This document shows positions 44 through 6,352 of a stretch of 41,898 bases of DNA, piece after piece. This stretch comes from Xanthomonas sp. GPE 39. GTDB lineage: Bacteria > Pseudomonadota > Gammaproteobacteria > Xanthomonadales > Xanthomonadaceae. A program made the position numbers and the translations under genes. Numbering within the stretch: the stretch's first letter is position 1; every line of letters begins with the position of its first letter. The DNA lies in NCBI RefSeq assembly GCF_000963005.1, contig NZ_JZHZ01000007.1, positions 3,294,017 through 3,335,914 of the forward strand. The letters run 5' to 3'. Under the pieces are notes generated by a model, which was not told where the DNA came from, did not search any database, and saw nothing but the letters and a program-made list of their open reading frames with translations.

Positions 44-70
44 AAGCCTCAAGTTCATAACACGCTCTAG
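44..70 (-). mobile_element. Probable insertion-sequence terminal end
   Basis: Read on the minus strand, the motif GAGCGTGTTATGAACTT begins directly after a CTAG tetranucleotide (67-70), a common target of IS5-family elements. The possible transposase start lies shortly inside it. The end sits 18 bp beyond the stop codon of the NRPS gene. The other end of the element is outside the window, so the inverted repeat cannot be confirmed here. Confidence 0.35.
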
Positions 71-87
71 CAGTCGTGTTAGGCCGC

Positions 88-2532
88 CTAATCACTCTTG
101 TGAATATACCGTGCAATCCCTGCCACAGTGTTGCGACCGGCCAAAGCGTGAATGTCGATATCGATATTCAAGGCATTGGAGATCTCCACAAAGAAGATGG
201 CCAGTCTCAGTGACGATGCCCCCATAGCAAAAAGATCATCGTCTACCGATTTCAGCGGATAATCCGGCATGATTTTTTGCCAAATCCCCCATAGTTCTTG
301 CTTTATAGGATCTTGCGGCAACTCTACCGATTGTATTTGCGTGGCAAAGATCGGAAGAGCATGAAGCTTTGCACGATCAATTTTACCGTTAGCATTAAGA
401 GGAAACTCATCAATCAAGGTATAATGGCGCGGGACCATTGCTGGCTGCAAATGCTCCTTCAGATACGACGTAATGCGTTCAAGCGCGGCAGGTTCATGCC
501 TATGGGGGCTTTCTCGCATCAGTAGATGCATCACAAGAACCCCATCGGTCCCGTTCATGCTGTTCCACGTCACGACAGCCTGGCGTACATCCTCGCAAGC
601 GCTCAGGCACATCTCGATCTCGTTCAGACCGATCCGGACGCCATTAATCTTGATTTGGTCGTCATGACGTCCTACAAAGACGAAATTGCCATCATCGTCG
701 GAAAACGCCAAGTCACCCGTTCTGTATATCCGCTCATCCTCGACTATTCCTGGCAGATTAAGAATTGAAAAGCGAGTCGTATTGAGATCCTCCCTGCCTA
801 TATAGCCAGGCGACACGATTGGCCCACCGATGCAAAGCTCACCAACGATACCAGCAGCAACTGGCATCATCATTTTGTCGAGCAAATAGGTCCGGACATT
901 GGGCAGGGAGTGGCCTATGGGTACATGTCGCTTCGCACGGTCGTTGAAATCGCAAGCATGGGCTGACATTAAAATTGTCGTTTCTGTCGTACCATATATA
1001 TTAAAGAGGCGCAAAGATTCTACAGACCCGCCTGGATAGAATTGGCTGGCATTTGCTGCTTCTCCACCAACAATAGCGGTGTGCAACGTGCTTGGCAGGC
1101 AATTCGGTGCAGCTGCGATTTTCGGCGCCCATTCATGCCAAACTGCTGTCGGCAGACAAATAACATTCATCTGATGCCTATCCAGCATTGCGAAATACTC
1201 GACCATCGAAAGTAATTCAGATCGCGGATGGATATAAATAGCGCCACCATGACATAGGCTCATGAAGATTTCGAGCAAGGAAAAATCGAAGGCTGCTTCG
1301 GTAAATTGTCCTATCCTTGGTGCACATTGCTTCAGTCCGAATGCCTCCCGAGCAGCAAAAATATGCTCCGACAGCGAGCCATGGGTAATGCGAACACCTT
1401 TGGGATGACCTGTACTTCCTGACGTATAAATAACGTAGGCATCGTCATCAAGGCAGACTTCCGGCAGGGTGATATTCTCGATGCCAGTCGAGACCGTCAT
1501 TTGATGGAGGTTGACGACAGGACAATGGATATTGTCCAGACATGCATGATTTGAGCTTTCGTACAGAACGACTGTTACTGAACAATCGGCAACGATATAA
1601 GCATTGCGTGCGGGTGGATTGCGCATACTTAAAGGTACATAGACCATGTTTGCCCGAAAAATACCGATGATCACGGCAACCCAGTCTGGTGAGCGCTCCA
1701 TCAACACACCAACGCGGCTGCCTGCAGGCAATCCTAATCCTATCAGGCTGTGTGCTATTGCACCTGCTCTGCTCCACAAGGTGCCATATGTCAGCTGCGT
1801 TTGGTCGTCCTGCACGGCCACTGCCCGAGATGTCTCATCTGCTGCATGGCACGCAATGAGGTCAATGACAGGCACGATGGGATACAACCGACATGGACCG
1901 AAACCCGATTCAACGAGCACTTTCAGGTCCGTGTCTGGAACATAATAGAGCTCGTCAATCGTGCGATGCGGCTGCTCCACAATCATTTCAAGCAAGTGTG
2001 ATAAATGAGCGGCAAAACGATCTGCCACTGCGCGCGGCAAATAATCATCACGATAACAAAGACGCATCACACTTGACTTGGATGTGTCAGAAAAGATGAT
2101 TTTGAGAAAGCAGCTCGCCATGTCGAGCGATGCCACTTCAAAACTATCGAACACATGTGTAATGACGGGTGTGAGTGCATCCTGGGCTGTATATCTGCCA
2201 TTGGTGGCACTCAGATGTTCAAGCAGAACAGAAAAGTGTTGCTGGCCAGGTTGCTCTATTTGATAGACCAACAAAGCCGGAACGATGCGCTTGTCGGGAT
2301 CTTTCGCCGAGATTTCCACCTGAATTTCCAAACGTTCAACGTGAGTATAACGATATAGAAGTGCAGTCGTCGCTGCCGTCAATACATCTTTGGAGCTTAC
2401 GGCAAATGCAGCAGACAAGCGATGTGCCGCCATGACAGCATCCTCGCTCAACGAGTGTTCCACGATCCGCATGCAACCATCGCGCCCTGTATCGATAGAT
2501 GCGCGTTTCAATGCGTCAATAATTTTAGTCAT
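88..2532 (-). CDS. Single-module NRPS protein: partial C, adenylation, carrier domain
   Basis: 814 residues. Residues 1-200 resemble only the C-terminal half of a condensation domain and contain no HHxxxDG motif, so peptide-bond catalysis is unlikely. The adenylation domain spans about 225-725: A3 at 369-379 (YTSGSTGHPKG), A4 around D416, A5 at 511-518 (NIYGTTET), A8 near YRTGDL (603-608), and A10 Lys at 717. The carrier domain ends the protein with GASSL, where Ser774 is the likely phosphopantetheine site. Aligning to GrsA by eye gives binding-pocket residues D-F-L-C-I-G-I-I-L-K, which I cannot assign to a substrate. Family knowledge: it would activate an amino or related acid and load it on its own carrier. 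It is the last gene of a four-gene operon, overlapping the upstream hydrolase by 4 bp. No thioesterase domain is fused. GC is lower than in the housekeeping genes. Confidence 0.88.
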   Translation of the reverse strand: MTKIIDALKRASIDTGRDGCMRIVEHSLSEDAVMAAHRLSAAFAVSSKDVLTAATTALLYRYTHVERLEIQVEISAKDPDKRIVPALLVYQIEQPGQQHFSVLLEHLSATNGRYTAQDALTPVITHVFDSFEVASLDMASCFLKIIFSDTSKSSVMRLCYRDDYLPRAVADRFAAHLSHLLEMIVEQPHRTIDELYYVPDTDLKVLVESGFGPCRLYPIVPVIDLIACHAADETSRAVAVQDDQTQLTYGTLWSRAGAIAHSLIGLGLPAGSRVGVLMERSPDWVAVIIGIFRANMVYVPLSMRNPPARNAYIVADCSVTVVLYESSNHACLDNIHCPVVNLHQMTVSTGIENITLPEVCLDDDAYVIYTSGSTGHPKGVRITHGSLSEHIFAAREAFGLKQCAPRIGQFTEAAFDFSLLEIFMSLCHGGAIYIHPRSELLSMVEYFAMLDRHQMNVICLPTAVWHEWAPKIAAAPNCLPSTLHTAIVGGEAANASQFYPGGSVESLRLFNIYGTTETTILMSAHACDFNDRAKRHVPIGHSLPNVRTYLLDKMMMPVAAGIVGELCIGGPIVSPGYIGREDLNTTRFSILNLPGIVEDERIYRTGDLAFSDDDGNFVFVGRHDDQIKINGVRIGLNEIEMCLSACEDVRQAVVTWNSMNGTDGVLVMHLLMRESPHRHEPAALERITSYLKEHLQPAMVPRHYTLIDEFPLNANGKIDRAKLHALPIFATQIQSVELPQDPIKQELWGIWQKIMPDYPLKSVDDDLFAMGASSLRLAIFFVEISNALNIDIDIHALAGRNTVAGIARYIHKSD

Positions 2533-3419
2533 GCCATTGCCTCGGTTAACGGCTTTTCTGCCTGTAACCGCAGGAAATTATCCATTGTGACAAGGGCTGG
2601 GGTGCCTGGACGGCACGGCAAATAATGGTCTTCGCCATCGAGAATGAGCTTTTCGGCCTGACTGAGAAATGCAAGAGGCAAGTCGGAACTTTGCGGAGAA
2701 GCGATCTTATCTTCAGCGCTGGCGATCAAGAGCGTTGGCGTATCTACGGAATTACACAAGCCCGACAAACCTTCGGCATAGACAGCATGCACGCACATTA
2801 CATATTTGTAGAATGTTTCAGCATCACGTAACGCGATGCTCGTGTGCTGATAAAACTCTTGATTAACATCGACTTTCGCAGCGAGGATATCTCTTACGGT
2901 CGAGGCAACTCGGGGTCGTCCCGCACAGCTTTTGATGAGATCATCGAATTCGCGTTCGTAGTCCGTGCGACGACTGGTCTCGAAGGCCCCGTTGCAGCAC
3001 ACTAGCGCAGAAAATCGATTTTCCAGCAACAAGGCAGCACGTACCGCGATCAAAGCACCAGTGCAGTATCCGAGCAGTCCGGCACGAGATAGAGCAAAGT
3101 GCTCCATAAGCGTAATGATATCGCGCGCATGAGAGGATGCGTCGATAGCCTCGTCAGTCAGAGTGCTCGTCGCACTATCCAAAACGAATCGGCTGTATAT
3201 TACATACACGGATGACCATCGACGCAGTTGCCGGATCATCGGCAATAAGGGATCTGCTGTAACGCCGATTGGTAGTACTATAACATTAGCATAAGAGCTT
3301 TCAGGGTTGAGGCATACATCCACCTGGAACCGTTGACTGTCCGCCGCTATGAGCCACTCGCTAGATAGATGGCATGGCATCTCTGAGTCGCTTAAAACTA
3401 GTTTAACTGGATTTATCAT
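2529..3419 (-). CDS. Alpha/beta hydrolase with cysteine nucleophile (thioesterase-like)
   Basis: 296 residues with an alpha/beta-hydrolase layout. The nucleophile elbow reads GYCTG, placing Cys119 where most thioesterases have Ser. Asp237 (SAEDK) and His265 (GEDHY) complete a plausible Cys-Asp-His triad. Cys at this position is known in dienelactone hydrolases and in some NRPS thioesterases that form strained rings, for example the obafluorin and sulfazecin enzymes. The ATG overlaps the upstream hydrolase stop by 4 bp, and its own stop overlaps the NRPS start by 4 bp, so it is translationally coupled to both. Inferred role: releasing or editing the acyl group on the NRPS carrier. It has no signal peptide and should be cytoplasmic. 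The fold is well supported; the substrate is not. Confidence 0.75.
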   Translation of the reverse strand: MINPVKLVLSDSEMPCHLSSEWLIAADSQRFQVDVCLNPESSYANVIVLPIGVTADPLLPMIRQLRRWSSVYVIYSRFVLDSATSTLTDEAIDASSHARDIITLMEHFALSRAGLLGYCTGALIAVRAALLLENRFSALVCCNGAFETSRRTDYEREFDDLIKSCAGRPRVASTVRDILAAKVDVNQEFYQHTSIALRDAETFYKYVMCVHAVYAEGLSGLCNSVDTPTLLIASAEDKIASPQSSDLPLAFLSQAEKLILDGEDHYLPCRPGTPALVTMDNFLRLQAEKPLTEAMA

Positions 3420-4276
3420 GGCGATTTTTCCGTTTTGTGCTCAGAGAAAGAAGCGAAAAAGTTTTCTACTGCGGCCACAACGTTTGGCACCTTCAAAATA
3501 TTGGCATGTGAAGCTCCTGGAATTTCCATATACTCCGCTTCCCGCCAGGCGTCCGCATAGGCTTGTCCCTCAGCTAAACCGACCACTCCGTCGTCTCGAC
3601 CCTGAATGATTAGGCCACGCTGTGGTCGTGGCATCTGTGTGATGATGAATGACGGATCCTGCATCGTCAGCACATCACCACCTTCATGAGCATTCAGCAT
3701 AACGTTGAGAGTTCCCATCTCTTTATCGCTCAAGCGATTCATGCGCTGAAAATGCTCAAACACCAGAGCCGCACGAAAGACACCGGATATTGCAACAAAA
3801 TGATTAATGCGCAACCCGCGAGCTATCGCATACCAAATCCAAAGGTTGCCAAGCGAATGGGCCACAACACCATGCAGCGCTCCCTCTCTGCAGATGATTT
3901 CTGCGAAAGCAGCAACGACATCGCTTGTCGAAAGCTTATAATTCTTGTCATTACTCTCATCGGAAAAATCAATCATCAAGGTGCGCCAACCTGATTCCGC
4001 AAGCGCACGAGCAATCGAGGCAAATTGGCTTCCCCTGCCACTTATGCCATGGACCAGCAGAATATTCGGCCCCTCTCCCATGCTGCGCAAACCCACCCGC
4101 ATAGCGTTCAGTGTAAAGCCACGGTCAGGAAGCGCTGACCAGAATTGATCCTCTTCCGGCGGACGTTTCGAGCGATAAAAGAGATACCATCGCTCGAGAT
4201 ATCTATCCATCGCTCTATCCATCGCCATGACGGAATCTGATTCGAGTTCATATTTCAATCGGGCGGACTCTTTCAT
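3416..4276 (-). CDS. Alpha/beta hydrolase (Ser nucleophile)
   Basis: 286 residues. LLVHGISG (about 73-80) forms the oxyanion-hole loop, and the elbow AHSLG carries Ser141. Asp228 or Asp229 (GRDDG) and His257 (GASHA) complete the triad. The first Gly of GxSxG is Ala, which is tolerated in the superfamily. The N-terminal 45 residues are charged and precede the fold. They contain a short direct repeat, AMDRAMDRY, and Met17 is an alternative start. The annotated ATG overlaps the P450 stop by 4 bp (4273-4276), which favours it. It is the second of two hydrolases in the operon, so they probably act at different steps, for example release and editing. Substrate unknown. Confidence 0.75.
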   Translation of the reverse strand: MKESARLKYELESDSVMAMDRAMDRYLERWYLFYRSKRPPEEDQFWSALPDRGFTLNAMRVGLRSMGEGPNILLVHGISGRGSQFASIARALAESGWRTLMIDFSDESNDKNYKLSTSDVVAAFAEIICREGALHGVVAHSLGNLWIWYAIARGLRINHFVAISGVFRAALVFEHFQRMNRLSDKEMGTLNVMLNAHEGGDVLTMQDPSFIITQMPRPQRGLIIQGRDDGVVGLAEGQAYADAWREAEYMEIPGASHANILKVPNVVAAVENFFASFSEHKTEKSP

Positions 4277-5529
4277 GATGCCACCAGCTCAACTAGACGT
4301 GGGCAGGCAGGAGAAGAAACAAGGTCATCAACAGAAACCGTCTTGATCGGCAACTTTGAAAATCCGCGCAAAACACTATTGAGTTGTCGCTCAGGAGTTC
4401 CCGATAAGACTATTCGCTCTGCATGCTTCACTAATGCACCGATCACCGCACGACCTAACCGTCTTGCCAGTCTTTGACCGATGCAGGCATGGACGCCGCT
4501 GCCGAAACTGAGCGTGCGTGACATGGGACGGTCGATACGAAAATCCCGACCGTTACTGAAAACGGTTTCATCATGGTTCGCGGACCCGAAGAGTATCGCG
4601 ACCTTCACGTCGGCTGGAAGTCTATAGCCATCCACCACAAAGGCCCGCTTCGTAGTGCGCGTTATAATCTGCGACGGAGAATCGAAGCGAAGTGCCTCAT
4701 TGTAGGCAGCCGGGACTAGTGAAGGGTTGGCACGTAACATTTCCCATTGGTCATCATGCGTTGCCAAGCAATAAATTGCGTTACCGATCGAATGTACCGT
4801 AGTATCGACGCTTGCAATGATAAGCGTCGAAAGTAGTTTATCGGCCTCGAAATCGGTAATAATACCTTGAGTGGCATTATTTTTTATCGCCGCGCCGACG
4901 CTGCCCGATTCGAGCCTGCTGATGAAATAGCCGAGAAGGGATTGCCCTTTTTGCATCGCCGCCAATCCGTTATTGACTCGCTCCCTGGCGGCCGTCTCGA
5001 TCGTATTGTTGAGCGGCCCATAGGCATTGAAGTGCGCATCTGTAAAACCTGCCAGCCTATGTCTACCGGTTTGCGGAAGGCCGAGGAGATCATAGATCGC
5101 ATTCTGGGTAACGGCTCGCGCCAGATCCGAAATGGCATCGAACTGTTCTTGCTGGACAAGGCTTTTGACGGTCTGATCGGCAATTACATCGATTTTTGCC
5201 TCTAATATTGCCAGCCTCTCGGTCATAAGTGCCGAATGCAGGACCTTTCGTAACCGGTCATGCTCTGGCGGGTCACTTGCCTGTATGGTCACGCCGATCT
5301 GGTGGGAATCCATCAGGGCATTGAGCGTCACGCCTTTCGCTGCTGAAAATACGTCATGATCCTCAAGGGCTTGCTTTGCCACTTGGTAACGGGTGAGCGC
5401 AAAAGCATTACAGCAAGACAGGAACACGACAGGCCCGAGGGCTCGCAATATCTCATAACTTTCATAAGGATCGGACAGACAAGCTTCTGAAAACAAGTCG
5501 ATGTCCGAGATGGGTAGTTTGTCTAACAC
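4273..5529 (-). CDS. Cytochrome P450
   Basis: 418 residues, the usual length of a soluble bacterial class I P450, with no membrane anchor. The I-helix has ASVDTT (239-244, with D242 and T243), the K-helix ExxR is E278-R281, and the heme loop FGSGVHACIG (342-351) supplies Cys349 as the thiolate ligand. The GTG start (5527-5529) has a GAGAG-type ribosome site just upstream. It is the first gene of the coupled operon with two hydrolases and an NRPS module. In known clusters such as nikkomycin and novobiocin, a P450 beta-hydroxylates an amino acid held on an adenylation-carrier protein. The same role is inferred here. No ferredoxin or ferredoxin reductase gene is adjacent; a general FNR lies far away at 30411-31196. 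Confidence 0.93.
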   Translation of the reverse strand: MLDKLPISDIDLFSEACLSDPYESYEILRALGPVVFLSCCNAFALTRYQVAKQALEDHDVFSAAKGVTLNALMDSHQIGVTIQASDPPEHDRLRKVLHSALMTERLAILEAKIDVIADQTVKSLVQQEQFDAISDLARAVTQNAIYDLLGLPQTGRHRLAGFTDAHFNAYGPLNNTIETAARERVNNGLAAMQKGQSLLGYFISRLESGSVGAAIKNNATQGIITDFEADKLLSTLIIASVDTTVHSIGNAIYCLATHDDQWEMLRANPSLVPAAYNEALRFDSPSQIITRTTKRAFVVDGYRLPADVKVAILFGSANHDETVFSNGRDFRIDRPMSRTLSFGSGVHACIGQRLARRLGRAVIGALVKHAERIVLSGTPERQLNSVLRGFSKLPIKTVSVDDLVSSPACPRLVELVAS

Positions 5530-5640
5530 GGAAGGACTCTCAATTTTAAGAATGGAATAAATTTCTTTTGAATATTCCGCTTTACTGGAAAATTTTTATC
5601 GTTTTATAAATTTTGCTTGCGCCTTTCCGTACCCATTCGC
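5530..5640 (-). promoter_or_regulatory. AT-rich leader, likely promoter of the P450/NRPS operon
   Basis: The stretch before the P450 start is markedly AT-rich. It includes a TTTATAAA block at 5603-5610 that can serve as a -10 element on the minus strand. I could not find a good -35 hexamer at 17 bp, so the exact promoter is uncertain. Its composition differs sharply from the GC-rich gaps elsewhere and suits a horizontally acquired, possibly H-NS-type silenced operon; that last point is inference. Confidence 0.3.
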
Positions 5641-6352
5641 ATTGCAATCCTGCGTTCGGCAGGCTCACTTAGTCTGTCCATAGGATGCCTTGAGTACAAA
5701 AATGCGCCGCGCACACTAACAGCTCAAGCAACTTAATCTCAAGCAACAAATGCAGTGACTTTCTGAGGAGTACGCCGTCCTGCAGATTGAAGTAAGCAAC
5801 GGCGTCAGCATCGGATCGATACGCCTCAGATCCAGTACGTCCACATTATCGGGTGAGCTTGCTCATCAAGACGAGCCGACTGACGTTGCCAACCCTGCCG
5901 CGAAGCGCTATCGACTGCACCGTAAGAACAGCGTGCGCGCACGCAAGATCGTTGAGGATGGTGCGTTATTACAGAGCATTGGCGACAACTGTGTGCTGTC
6001 GCGCGCAAGTCCAGCGGCGTGAATGCGGATTACTTACGCTCAACTTTCAAGTGCAACGCCGCGCAATCATGCTGTGTGGACGCATGGAAAAACAGTCGCG
6101 TCATTTGATTTCTGAGACGCAAGATACTGCAAATGGAAGTCTGGAAACGGTGTCAGCATCCGTTGCCAGACCGACGTCCATCCATCACATCAGTGCTGTG
6201 TAGCAGCCGGATTTGTGGATGCTACTTTCTAGCGAGACGAAAGCTGGGACGTGAAGAAGCATTTTCCGAAACAAGCGCTTTTCGGAAGAACAGAGCATCG
6301 GCTTCCTGCACGAGGCGGAGGGAGAGTTTCACGTCATCGGCAGACCGGAACG
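5641..6352. other. Gene-poor island edge, possible gene remnants
   Basis: About 700 bases between the accessory operon and the SDR gene have no convincing gene. On the plus strand a frame free of stops for roughly 80 codons ends at about 6022. It reads protein-like (for example DEPTDVANPAAKRY) but has no good start, ribosome site or recognisable family. It may be the remnant of a gene broken when the island was inserted. GC rises from left to right across the stretch. Confidence 0.3.
6265..6288 (-). terminator. Stem-loop downstream of the SDR gene
   Basis: TTCCGAAA (6265-6272) and TTTCGGAA (6281-6288) form a perfect 8-bp inverted repeat with an 8-base loop, about 65 bases past the SDR stop. 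No clear T-run follows on the minus strand, so it may act as a processing or stabilising hairpin instead. Confidence 0.35.

What the first reader, a model, noticed from the sequence alone, without database searches (positions are those of the whole stretch)
88..5529. Unrecognised P450 / two-hydrolase / one-module NRPS operon
Four genes, each joined by a 4-bp overlap, encode a P450, two alpha/beta hydrolases and a protein with a half condensation domain, an adenylation domain and a carrier. A carrier-bound amino acid oxidised by the P450 and released by a hydrolase is a known logic (nikkomycin, novobiocin), but this gene combination with two free-standing hydrolases and no fused TE is not one I know. 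Composition is visibly more AT-rich than the neighbours, pointing to transfer.
Basis: partly seen in the sequence, partly recalled or inferred. Interest (0 to 1): 0.85.

Follow-up and report, generated by a model that had tools for sequence, protein, structure and literature searches.

The report
Amino-acid oxidise-and-deliver gene cassette
Four joined genes in a relative of the sugarcane bacterium Xanthomonas albilineans probably load one amino acid onto a carrier protein, oxidise it there, and hand it over to another peptide-building machine instead of simply cutting it free.

Summary
In detail: four minus-strand genes (P450, two alpha/beta hydrolases H1 and H2, A-T protein with a condensation-domain remnant), joined by 4-bp overlaps, GC 0.501 against 0.640 in window 6301-41898. 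X. albilineans CFBP2523 has the same four genes in the same order (80-88% protein identity) at another chromosomal site; dN/dS 0.17-0.32 says they are kept working. In trees H2 groups (100/99; 99/98) with six other cysteine proteins, and one serine protein; all six cysteine proteins stand in loci with A-domain or NRPS genes, four of them beside an A domain and a chlorinating enzyme. That is the setting of SyrC/CmaE/CysB aminoacyl shuttles. The likely logic is therefore load, oxidise, transfer to another carrier, rather than load, oxidise, hydrolyse. The P450 resembles CYP199A but lacks that family's carboxylate-binding residues. Amino acid, oxidation, acceptor carrier and the role of H1 remain unknown. 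Verdict: new variant of a known kind, moderate interest.

The parts
4273..5529 (-). cytochrome P450, 418 aa, GTG start; CYP199A-related; heme-Cys motif FGSGVHACIG at 342, EALR at 278, DTT at 242-244
3416..4276 (-). H1, alpha/beta hydrolase, 286 aa, serine nucleophile motif (AHSLG, S141), role unclear
2529..3419 (-). H2, alpha/beta hydrolase-fold protein, 296 aa, cysteine nucleophile; proposed aminoacyl shuttle between carriers
3063..3065 (-). H2 Cys119 codon, nucleophile elbow GYCTG
2709..2711 (-). H2 Asp237 codon, presumed catalytic acid
2625..2627 (-). H2 His265 codon, presumed catalytic base
88..2532 (-). one-module NRPS protein, 814 aa: condensation remnant - A - T, no TE match
1855..2532 (-). 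N-terminal 226 aa, C-terminal remnant of a condensation domain (Pfam match at 1915-2106), no HHxxxD pattern
382..1845 (-). adenylation domain with core motifs (YTSGSTGHPKG, YRTGD, NGKIDR)
103..285 (-). carrier (T) domain, motif DDLFAMGASS
67..5901 (.). block shared with X. albilineans CFBP2523 (85% DNA identity) but at another chromosomal site there

Best explanation
A horizontally acquired 'modify in trans and deliver' cassette of an NRPS system. The A-T protein loads one amino acid onto its own carrier; its condensation remnant cannot condense. The P450 oxidises the carrier-bound residue. H2 takes the aminoacyl group onto Cys119 and passes it to the carrier of another NRPS protein encoded elsewhere in the genome. 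H1 may clear mis-loaded carriers (type II thioesterase-like) or act later. Shown here: gene order, motifs, the conserved C-D-H residues, the clade, the neighbourhoods of the relatives, the two genomic sites, purifying selection. Inferred: that the P450 substrate is the carrier-bound residue, that H2 transfers rather than hydrolyses, the acceptor, and the role of H1.
For: H2 keeps Cys119, Asp237 and His265 in all six sequences of alignment A6. In trees of 18 and 17 rows H2 groups with these relatives at 100/99 and 99/98, away from the other hydrolases. All 4 A6 relatives outside the two Xanthomonas sit beside an A-domain gene and a chlorinating enzyme, each chlorinating enzyme above the TIGR01762 cut-off. 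Two further cysteine members: one beside NRPS and MbtH genes in Sinorhizobium, one in X. albilineans in a locus with condensation, carrier and thioesterase domains, a PABA-synthase-type gene and a carbamoyltransferase, which I take for the albicidin locus. SyrC, CmaE and CysB transfer aminoacyl groups between carriers; CysB was shown to do so in vitro (passages of PMC7966384, PMC8748450). The P450 lacks the CYP199A carboxylate-binding residues (R92, S95, S244 become Q, V, T), as expected if the carboxyl group is tied up as a thioester. No fused TE was matched. The genome holds many condensation and carrier domains as possible acceptors. dN/dS is 0.17-0.32.
Against: H2 is only 22-26% identical to the four A6 relatives, and its closest branch in the clade is not resolved. 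One clade member (L095) has serine, and one cysteine protein (L096) lies outside the clade, so Cys alone is not diagnostic. SyrC, CmaE and CysB themselves were not in the trees. No NCBIfam model names H2 a shuttle; its weak hits are enol-lactonases and esterases, though such generic models also top the list for the halogenase-associated relatives. No acceptor carrier was identified, and the NRPS regions of this assembly look unreliable. The structure model of H2 failed (pLDDT 31.5). H1 is not explained. The shared block holds no redox-partner, transporter, regulator or MbtH-like ORF that I could see.
Confidence: 0.6

Rival explanations
1. Load, oxidise, hydrolyse: the P450 oxidises the carrier-bound amino acid and one of the hydrolases (H1 with serine, or H2) releases it as a free beta-hydroxy or otherwise oxidised amino acid, as in novobiocin, nikkomycin and echinomycin.
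For: A stand-alone A-T protein, a P450 and a thioesterase are the parts of those systems (passages of PMC3578932; PMC7966384). H1 keeps a serine nucleophile motif. The best plasmid match of H1 (23.8% identity) stands beside a polyketide synthase and a second hydrolase gene.
Against: H2 groups with the cysteine shuttle-type set. H1 matched no thioesterase family at E 0.001. Of the 14 genomes other than the own one with an H1 match I looked into one neighbourhood; the two neighbours tested were a phosphotransferase and a NAPRTase. The shared block has no further enzyme gene that would use a free amino acid.
Confidence: 0.22
2. The P450 acts on a small aromatic acid or other free molecule, as CYP199A enzymes do, and H2 acylates it with the carrier-bound amino acid to give a small conjugate.
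For: CYP199A is the nearest solved P450 group, 202-213 bits against 147 for the next. By eye in the printed alignment, F182 and A248 of its ring pocket are kept and F185 is Y. A carrier-to-small-molecule acyltransferase is known (CouN7, in a passage of PMC8748450).
Against: The residues that hold the free carboxylate are replaced in both species. No aromatic-acid gene lies in the block.
Confidence: 0.1
3. H2 is a cysteine thioesterase that cyclises a beta-hydroxy-aminoacyl thioester to a beta-lactone, obafluorin-like (recalled).
For: Cysteine nucleophile plus a P450 that could beta-hydroxylate.
Against: No thioesterase-family match for H2 at E 0.001, and the neighbourhoods of its relatives are those of carrier-to-carrier shuttles. 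No such thioesterase was in my trees, so this was not tested directly.
Confidence: 0.04
4. Decaying or passenger genes with no function.
For: Low GC and a different site in each species; a transposase gene about 9 kb before the copy in CFBP2523, transposase-like ORFs nearer to it (by eye) and a conjugation-gene set about 2 kb beyond it.
Against: All four frames intact in both species, core motifs intact in the window copy, dN/dS 0.17-0.32.
Confidence: 0.04

Closest known systems
Syringomycin SyrB1/SyrB2/SyrC
   Same: Stand-alone A-T protein, an oxidising enzyme acting on the carrier-bound residue, and a shuttle protein to another NRPS (passage of PMC8949500)
   Different: The oxidiser there is a halogenase; here a P450. 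An extra serine hydrolase and a condensation remnant are present here. Acceptor unknown
Coronamic acid CmaA/CmaE/CmaD
   Same: A shuttle moves the aminoacyl group from an A-T didomain to another carrier (passage of PMC8748450)
   Different: There the shuttle delivers to a free-standing T protein and later enzymes work on that; no free-standing T gene was seen in this block
Cystobactamid CysH/CysJ/CysB and the albicidin counterpart
   Same: A residue is modified on a stand-alone module and shuttled to a module whose own A domain is inactive (passages of PMC7966384)
   Different: CysH carries an AMDH domain, and CysJ is an oxygenase that is not a P450 (the latter recalled). The albicidin-type relative in X. 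albilineans (L127) is a distant member of the same clade
Type II thioesterase-like shuttles: WS9326A WS5/WS20, legonindolizidine LgnA, rotihibin RthD
   Same: Aminoacyl transfer from a stand-alone A-T didomain to another carrier (passages of PMC8748450, PMC10956176, PMC8552735)
   Different: Those shuttles are of the type II thioesterase kind; H2 matched no thioesterase family. That WS9326A also uses a P450 is recalled
Echinomycin Qui18/Qui15/Qui14, novobiocin NovH/NovI, nikkomycin
   Same: Stand-alone A-T protein plus P450 acting on the loaded amino acid (passages of PMC3578932)
   Different: There a thioesterase is held to release the free amino acid; here the conserved cysteine partner points to transfer
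CYP199A4 / PbdA (CYP199A)
   Same: Nearest solved structures to the P450
   Different: Carboxylate-binding R92, S95, S244 replaced by Q, V, T; the gene sits with an NRPS gene, not with aromatic degradation genes
Short NRPS genes XALc_0364 and XALc_1145 of X. albilineans
   Same: One-module NRPS genes in the same species group (passages of PMC3849588)
   Different: Those are C-A-PCP-TE and overlap a glycosyltransferase; this one has no TE match and sits with a P450

Membership tests
SyrC/CmaE/CysB aminoacyl shuttle (H2) | alpha/beta-hydrolase fold with a cysteine nucleophile (that SyrC and CmaE use Cys is recalled) | tested here: met
   C119, D237, H265 invariant in 6 of 6 sequences of A6; fold by profile match of A6 to 56 distinct PDB sequences at E up to 1e-5; no usable model
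SyrC/CmaE/CysB aminoacyl shuttle (H2) | common descent with shuttle proteins | tested here: inconclusive
   Clade support 100/99 and 99/98 with halogenase-locus and albicidin-type members. SyrC, CmaE and CysB themselves were not in the trees
SyrC/CmaE/CysB aminoacyl shuttle (H2) | gene next to a stand-alone A-T protein and an oxidising enzyme | tested here: met
   H2 sits between H1 and the A-T gene, with the P450 first in the operon; 4 of 4 A6 relatives outside the two Xanthomonas sit beside an A domain and a chlorinating enzyme
SyrC/CmaE/CysB aminoacyl shuttle (H2) | transfers the aminoacyl group between two carriers | not testable with these tools
   needs biochemistry; step referred
SyrC/CmaE/CysB aminoacyl shuttle (H2) | an acceptor carrier (A-less or dead-A module, or free T) | tested here: inconclusive
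   Pfam maps of G000 show no case that I could trust; the NRPS stretches look mis-assembled
Novobiocin/nikkomycin/echinomycin-type release | thioesterase that releases the free modified amino acid | tested here: inconclusive
   H1 is an alpha/beta hydrolase without a thioesterase match; no functional test
CYP199A (P450) | carboxylate-binding R92, S95, S244 (CYP199A4 numbers) | tested here: not met
   Q, V and T in the window (places counted by hand with the heme cysteine as anchor) and in CFBP2523; residues from passages
Functional condensation domain | HHxxxDG motif in a full-length domain | tested here: not met
   no HHxxxD pattern; only profile positions 392-455 match, below cut-off

The most novel reading that the evidence does not exclude
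A mobile cassette that pairs a P450, evolved from an aromatic-acid oxidase line by losing its carboxylate clamp, with a SyrC-type cysteine shuttle. It makes an oxidised amino acid in trans and supplies it to whichever NRPS assembly lines a host owns, so that peptide chemistry changes by gaining one 5.8-kb block.
Probability: 0.35. Interest if true: 0.65.

Novelty: new variant of a known kind. Interest (0 to 1): 0.5.

Why it matters
If true, the shuttle logic known from halogenase and other oxygenase systems also works with a P450, and the cassette is a compact portable unit that adds an oxidised residue to someone else's peptide. It would also explain a one-module NRPS gene without a working condensation or release domain in a group whose large NRPS products are mostly unknown, and it would mark cysteine hydrolases beside A-T genes as delivery enzymes rather than thioesterases.

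Tried and rejected
H1 relatives: 15 of 398 genomes at E 1e-12, own included. I fetched three neighbourhoods (L137-L139) and looked into one; in L137 the three proteins tested were the hydrolase, a phosphotransferase and a NAPRTase. L138 and L139 were not read. The best plasmid match of H1 lies beside a polyketide synthase and a second hydrolase.

N-terminal remnant of the A-T protein as a search handle: only the own genome among 369 at E 1e-6 (G001 did not appear among the rows shown); its profile has one PDB match, at E 0.43.

Acceptor hunt in the own genome: 51 condensation, 47 carrier and 54 AMP-binding places, not all of them NRPS. Alternating strands and truncated domains make an A-less module impossible to call, so I drew no conclusion.

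Structure of H2 from two sequences: pLDDT 31.5, discarded, no fold search made. A model of the N-terminal remnant could not be queued.

Rows dropped: of the 11 places other than the own one I put 9 in the trees; L103 (biased composition) and L104 (a stop inside) were left out. For the second tree I also left out H1 of both species and L088_other, and added L127 and L109. Of 8 plasmid records with an H2 match I opened 3; the five unopened are Sinorhizobium records with the same scores as the opened one. L109 and L127 were not in alignment A6.

The A-domain code, read by eye against recalled GrsA positions, is D-F-L-C-I-G-I-I-L-K (C at the ninth place in CFBP2523). I recall no exact match; I treat the substrate as unknown, perhaps hydrophobic or aromatic.

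AT, P450, H1 and H2 searched in plasmids by protein: no place with the four genes among the rows and regions that I read (for AT 15 of 2457 records listed, for P450 40 of 1198).

Whether strain GPE PC73, the subject of most of the papers, has the operon was not tested; the passages read list no such locus, but one names a P450 gene, XALc_2283 (351 aa), which I could not compare.

Full report
What is there. Four ORFs on the minus strand: P450 (5529-4273), hydrolase H1 (4276-3416), hydrolase H2 (3419-2529) and a one-module NRPS protein (2532-88), each joint a 4-bp ATGA overlap. Pfam and NCBIfam confirm a P450, two alpha/beta hydrolases, A and T domains; the condensation match covers only profile positions 392-455 and is below its cut-off, and there is no HHxxxD pattern. 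The operon has GC 0.501 against 0.640 for window 6301-41898. In the 370 bases of the shared block upstream of the P450, the ORFs of 30 aa or more that lie wholly inside are 36, 39 and 42 aa long, and none of the ORFs listed there looks like a carrier or MbtH protein by eye.

Where it is. The window lies in an unnamed 3.53-Mb genome. The nearest named copy is in X. albilineans CFBP2523 (L004), whose four proteins are 80-88% identical in the same order. By contig position (H2 at base 129150 in both) I take G001 to be the same strain. Within the genus, H2 is in 2 of 20 genomes, own included. The shared block is window 67-5901 at 85% DNA identity. To its right, window 6008-8786 matches a locus of G001 whose fetched 17 kb carry no operon; the corresponding 12.8-kb stretches of G007 and G010 carry none either. 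In CFBP2523 the block lies about 2 kb after uvrB, with VirB8, CagX and TrbI conjugation genes about 2 kb beyond its other end and a transposase gene about 9 kb before it; a transposase-like ORF shortly beyond the block, seen by eye, had no Pfam match. So the block sits at two different sites in two close relatives and has the GC of neither neighbourhood: it is mobile or was acquired twice. dN/dS between the copies is 0.17 (P450), 0.24 (H1), 0.21 (H2) and 0.32 (A-T), so it is kept working. The left border of the block in the own genome lies close to a run of N and is uncertain.

What H2 is. In H2 the nucleophile elbow reads GYCTG. A tblastn against plasmids returned 8 records. The best two are in Burkholderia stagnalis, beside an adenylation gene, a carrier and a chlorinating enzyme, and in Kitasatospora, between a chlorinating enzyme and a large NRPS. 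Genome searches with the H2 profile gave 3 of 297 family genomes at E 1e-8 and 2 of 398 phylum genomes at E 1e-10, both counts including the own genome; the two hits outside the albilineans pair (G172, G485) again stand beside an A-domain gene and a chlorinating enzyme. All four chlorinating enzymes exceed the TIGR01762 cut-off. Cys119, Asp237 and His265 are invariant in the six sequences. A wider class search with the six-sequence profile found 11 of 369 genomes at E 1e-15, own included; of the 11 other places, 9 were put in a tree, where one (a serine member fused to a reductase, L095) falls in the H2 clade and 8 fall outside. One of the 8, L096, also has a cysteine. Clade support is 100/99, and 99/98 after adding two more relatives: a Sinorhizobium protein beside MbtH and NRPS genes, and a cysteine protein of X. 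albilineans in a locus with condensation, carrier and thioesterase domains, a PABA-synthase-type gene, an MFS gene and a carbamoyltransferase, for which the own genome has no match of comparable score (1.1e-25 against 2.3e-6). I infer that the latter is the albicidin shuttle; a paper states that one 'X. pseudalbilineans' strain lacks the albicidin locus (passages of PMC4584326). Within the clade, the exact neighbours of H2 are not resolved.

What such proteins do. SyrC carries the threonyl or chlorothreonyl group from SyrB1 to SyrE (passage of PMC8949500), CmaE carries an aminoacyl group from CmaA to CmaD (passage of PMC8748450), and CysB was shown in vitro to load CysK module 3 from CysH (passages of PMC7966384). 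The same paper contrasts this with novobiocin, nikkomycin and vancomycin, where a thioesterase frees the amino acid. That contrast is the choice here, and the family of H2 speaks for transfer. Type II thioesterase-like proteins can also act as shuttles (passages).

The P450. The 18 best PDB sequences form one block at 202-213 bits, those with a family name being CYP199; the next is at 147. In CYP199A4 and PbdA, R92, S95 and S244 (CYP199A4 numbers) hold the benzoate carboxylate and are said to be conserved in the CYP199A family (passages of PMC11854964 and PMC11530827). By the printed alignment they are Q, V and T here, and R243 is S (counted by hand with the heme cysteine as anchor; the same stretches in CFBP2523). 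Heme cysteine, ExxR and the acid-alcohol pair are present. This fits a substrate without free carboxylate, such as a carrier-bound amino acid; it does not prove it. Among the 40 plasmid rows listed of 1198, the closest by identity are two Rhodococcus P450s at 38.8%; the one opened lies among aromatic-degradation genes.

The A-T protein. The A-domain core motifs searched for are present, including the late lysine. The remnant at its N-terminus was found in no other genome of 369 and has no significant PDB match. H1 keeps a serine motif and is an alpha/beta hydrolase without a thioesterase match.

What I could not settle. The amino acid, the kind of oxidation, the acceptor carrier and the role of H1. 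The assembly of the own NRPS regions shows alternating strands and broken domains, so an A-less acceptor module cannot be recognised. The structure model failed.

Literature. The passages shown of four papers on X. albilineans and its sister species describe three large NRPS loci besides albicidin and two short C-A-PCP-TE genes with a glycosyltransferase, and no locus like this one; one of them names a P450 gene, XALc_2283, that I could not compare. A fifth gave one passage, on NRPS indels. I saw passages, not whole texts. Two searches that combined a P450 with a SyrC-type shuttle returned few papers; among those I opened, one describes a cluster with both kinds of gene, a piperazic-acid lipopeptide cluster whose stand-alone A-T protein is thought to be served by a SyrC-like protein while its P450 is assigned to hydroxylation of alanine and piperazic acid residues (passages of PMC10609185). 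One listed paper (PMC4787774) I did not open. That such a pairing is not described elsewhere is a statement about these searches only; subscription papers are mostly not held.

Verdict. Real, intact, conserved and probably functional; the logic is most likely a P450 version of the SyrB1/SyrB2/SyrC kind. New variant of a known kind.

Noticed in passing
G000 contig C1, about 65-145 kb, 1420-1437 kb and 1599-1615 kb: NRPS stretches with alternating strands and/or truncated C and A domains, probably mis-assembly of repeated modules.
   Followed up: partly
L127 1450-2424 (G001 C1:360578-361417) and L140: A SyrC/CysB-like cysteine protein in X. albilineans in an NRPS locus with PABA-synthase-type, carbamoyltransferase and MFS genes, with no counterpart of comparable score in the window's genome.
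   Followed up: partly
L003 8-1444 and 2608-4227, left of the window: Two copies of a cellulase-like gene with long Gly-Gly-Gly-Thr-Ser linkers interrupted by runs of N (Pfam GH5 tested for the second); the second runs into the operon's 3' end only through a scaffold gap.
   Followed up: no
L091 8670-12283 (G172, same family as the window): A hydrolase - A domain - chlorinating enzyme trio, with a transposase-like ORF upstream (by eye), in another genus of the family; looks like a halogenating delivery set.
   Followed up: partly
L004 17672-20588: VirB8, CagX and TrbI-type conjugation genes about 2 kb beyond the end of the operon in X. albilineans CFBP2523.
   Followed up: partly
L106 8929-11016 (G1024): A reductase (NAD_binding_4) fused to an H2-like hydrolase with serine, beside an AMP-binding gene and an AurF-like oxygenase: an unusual fusion.
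   Followed up: no
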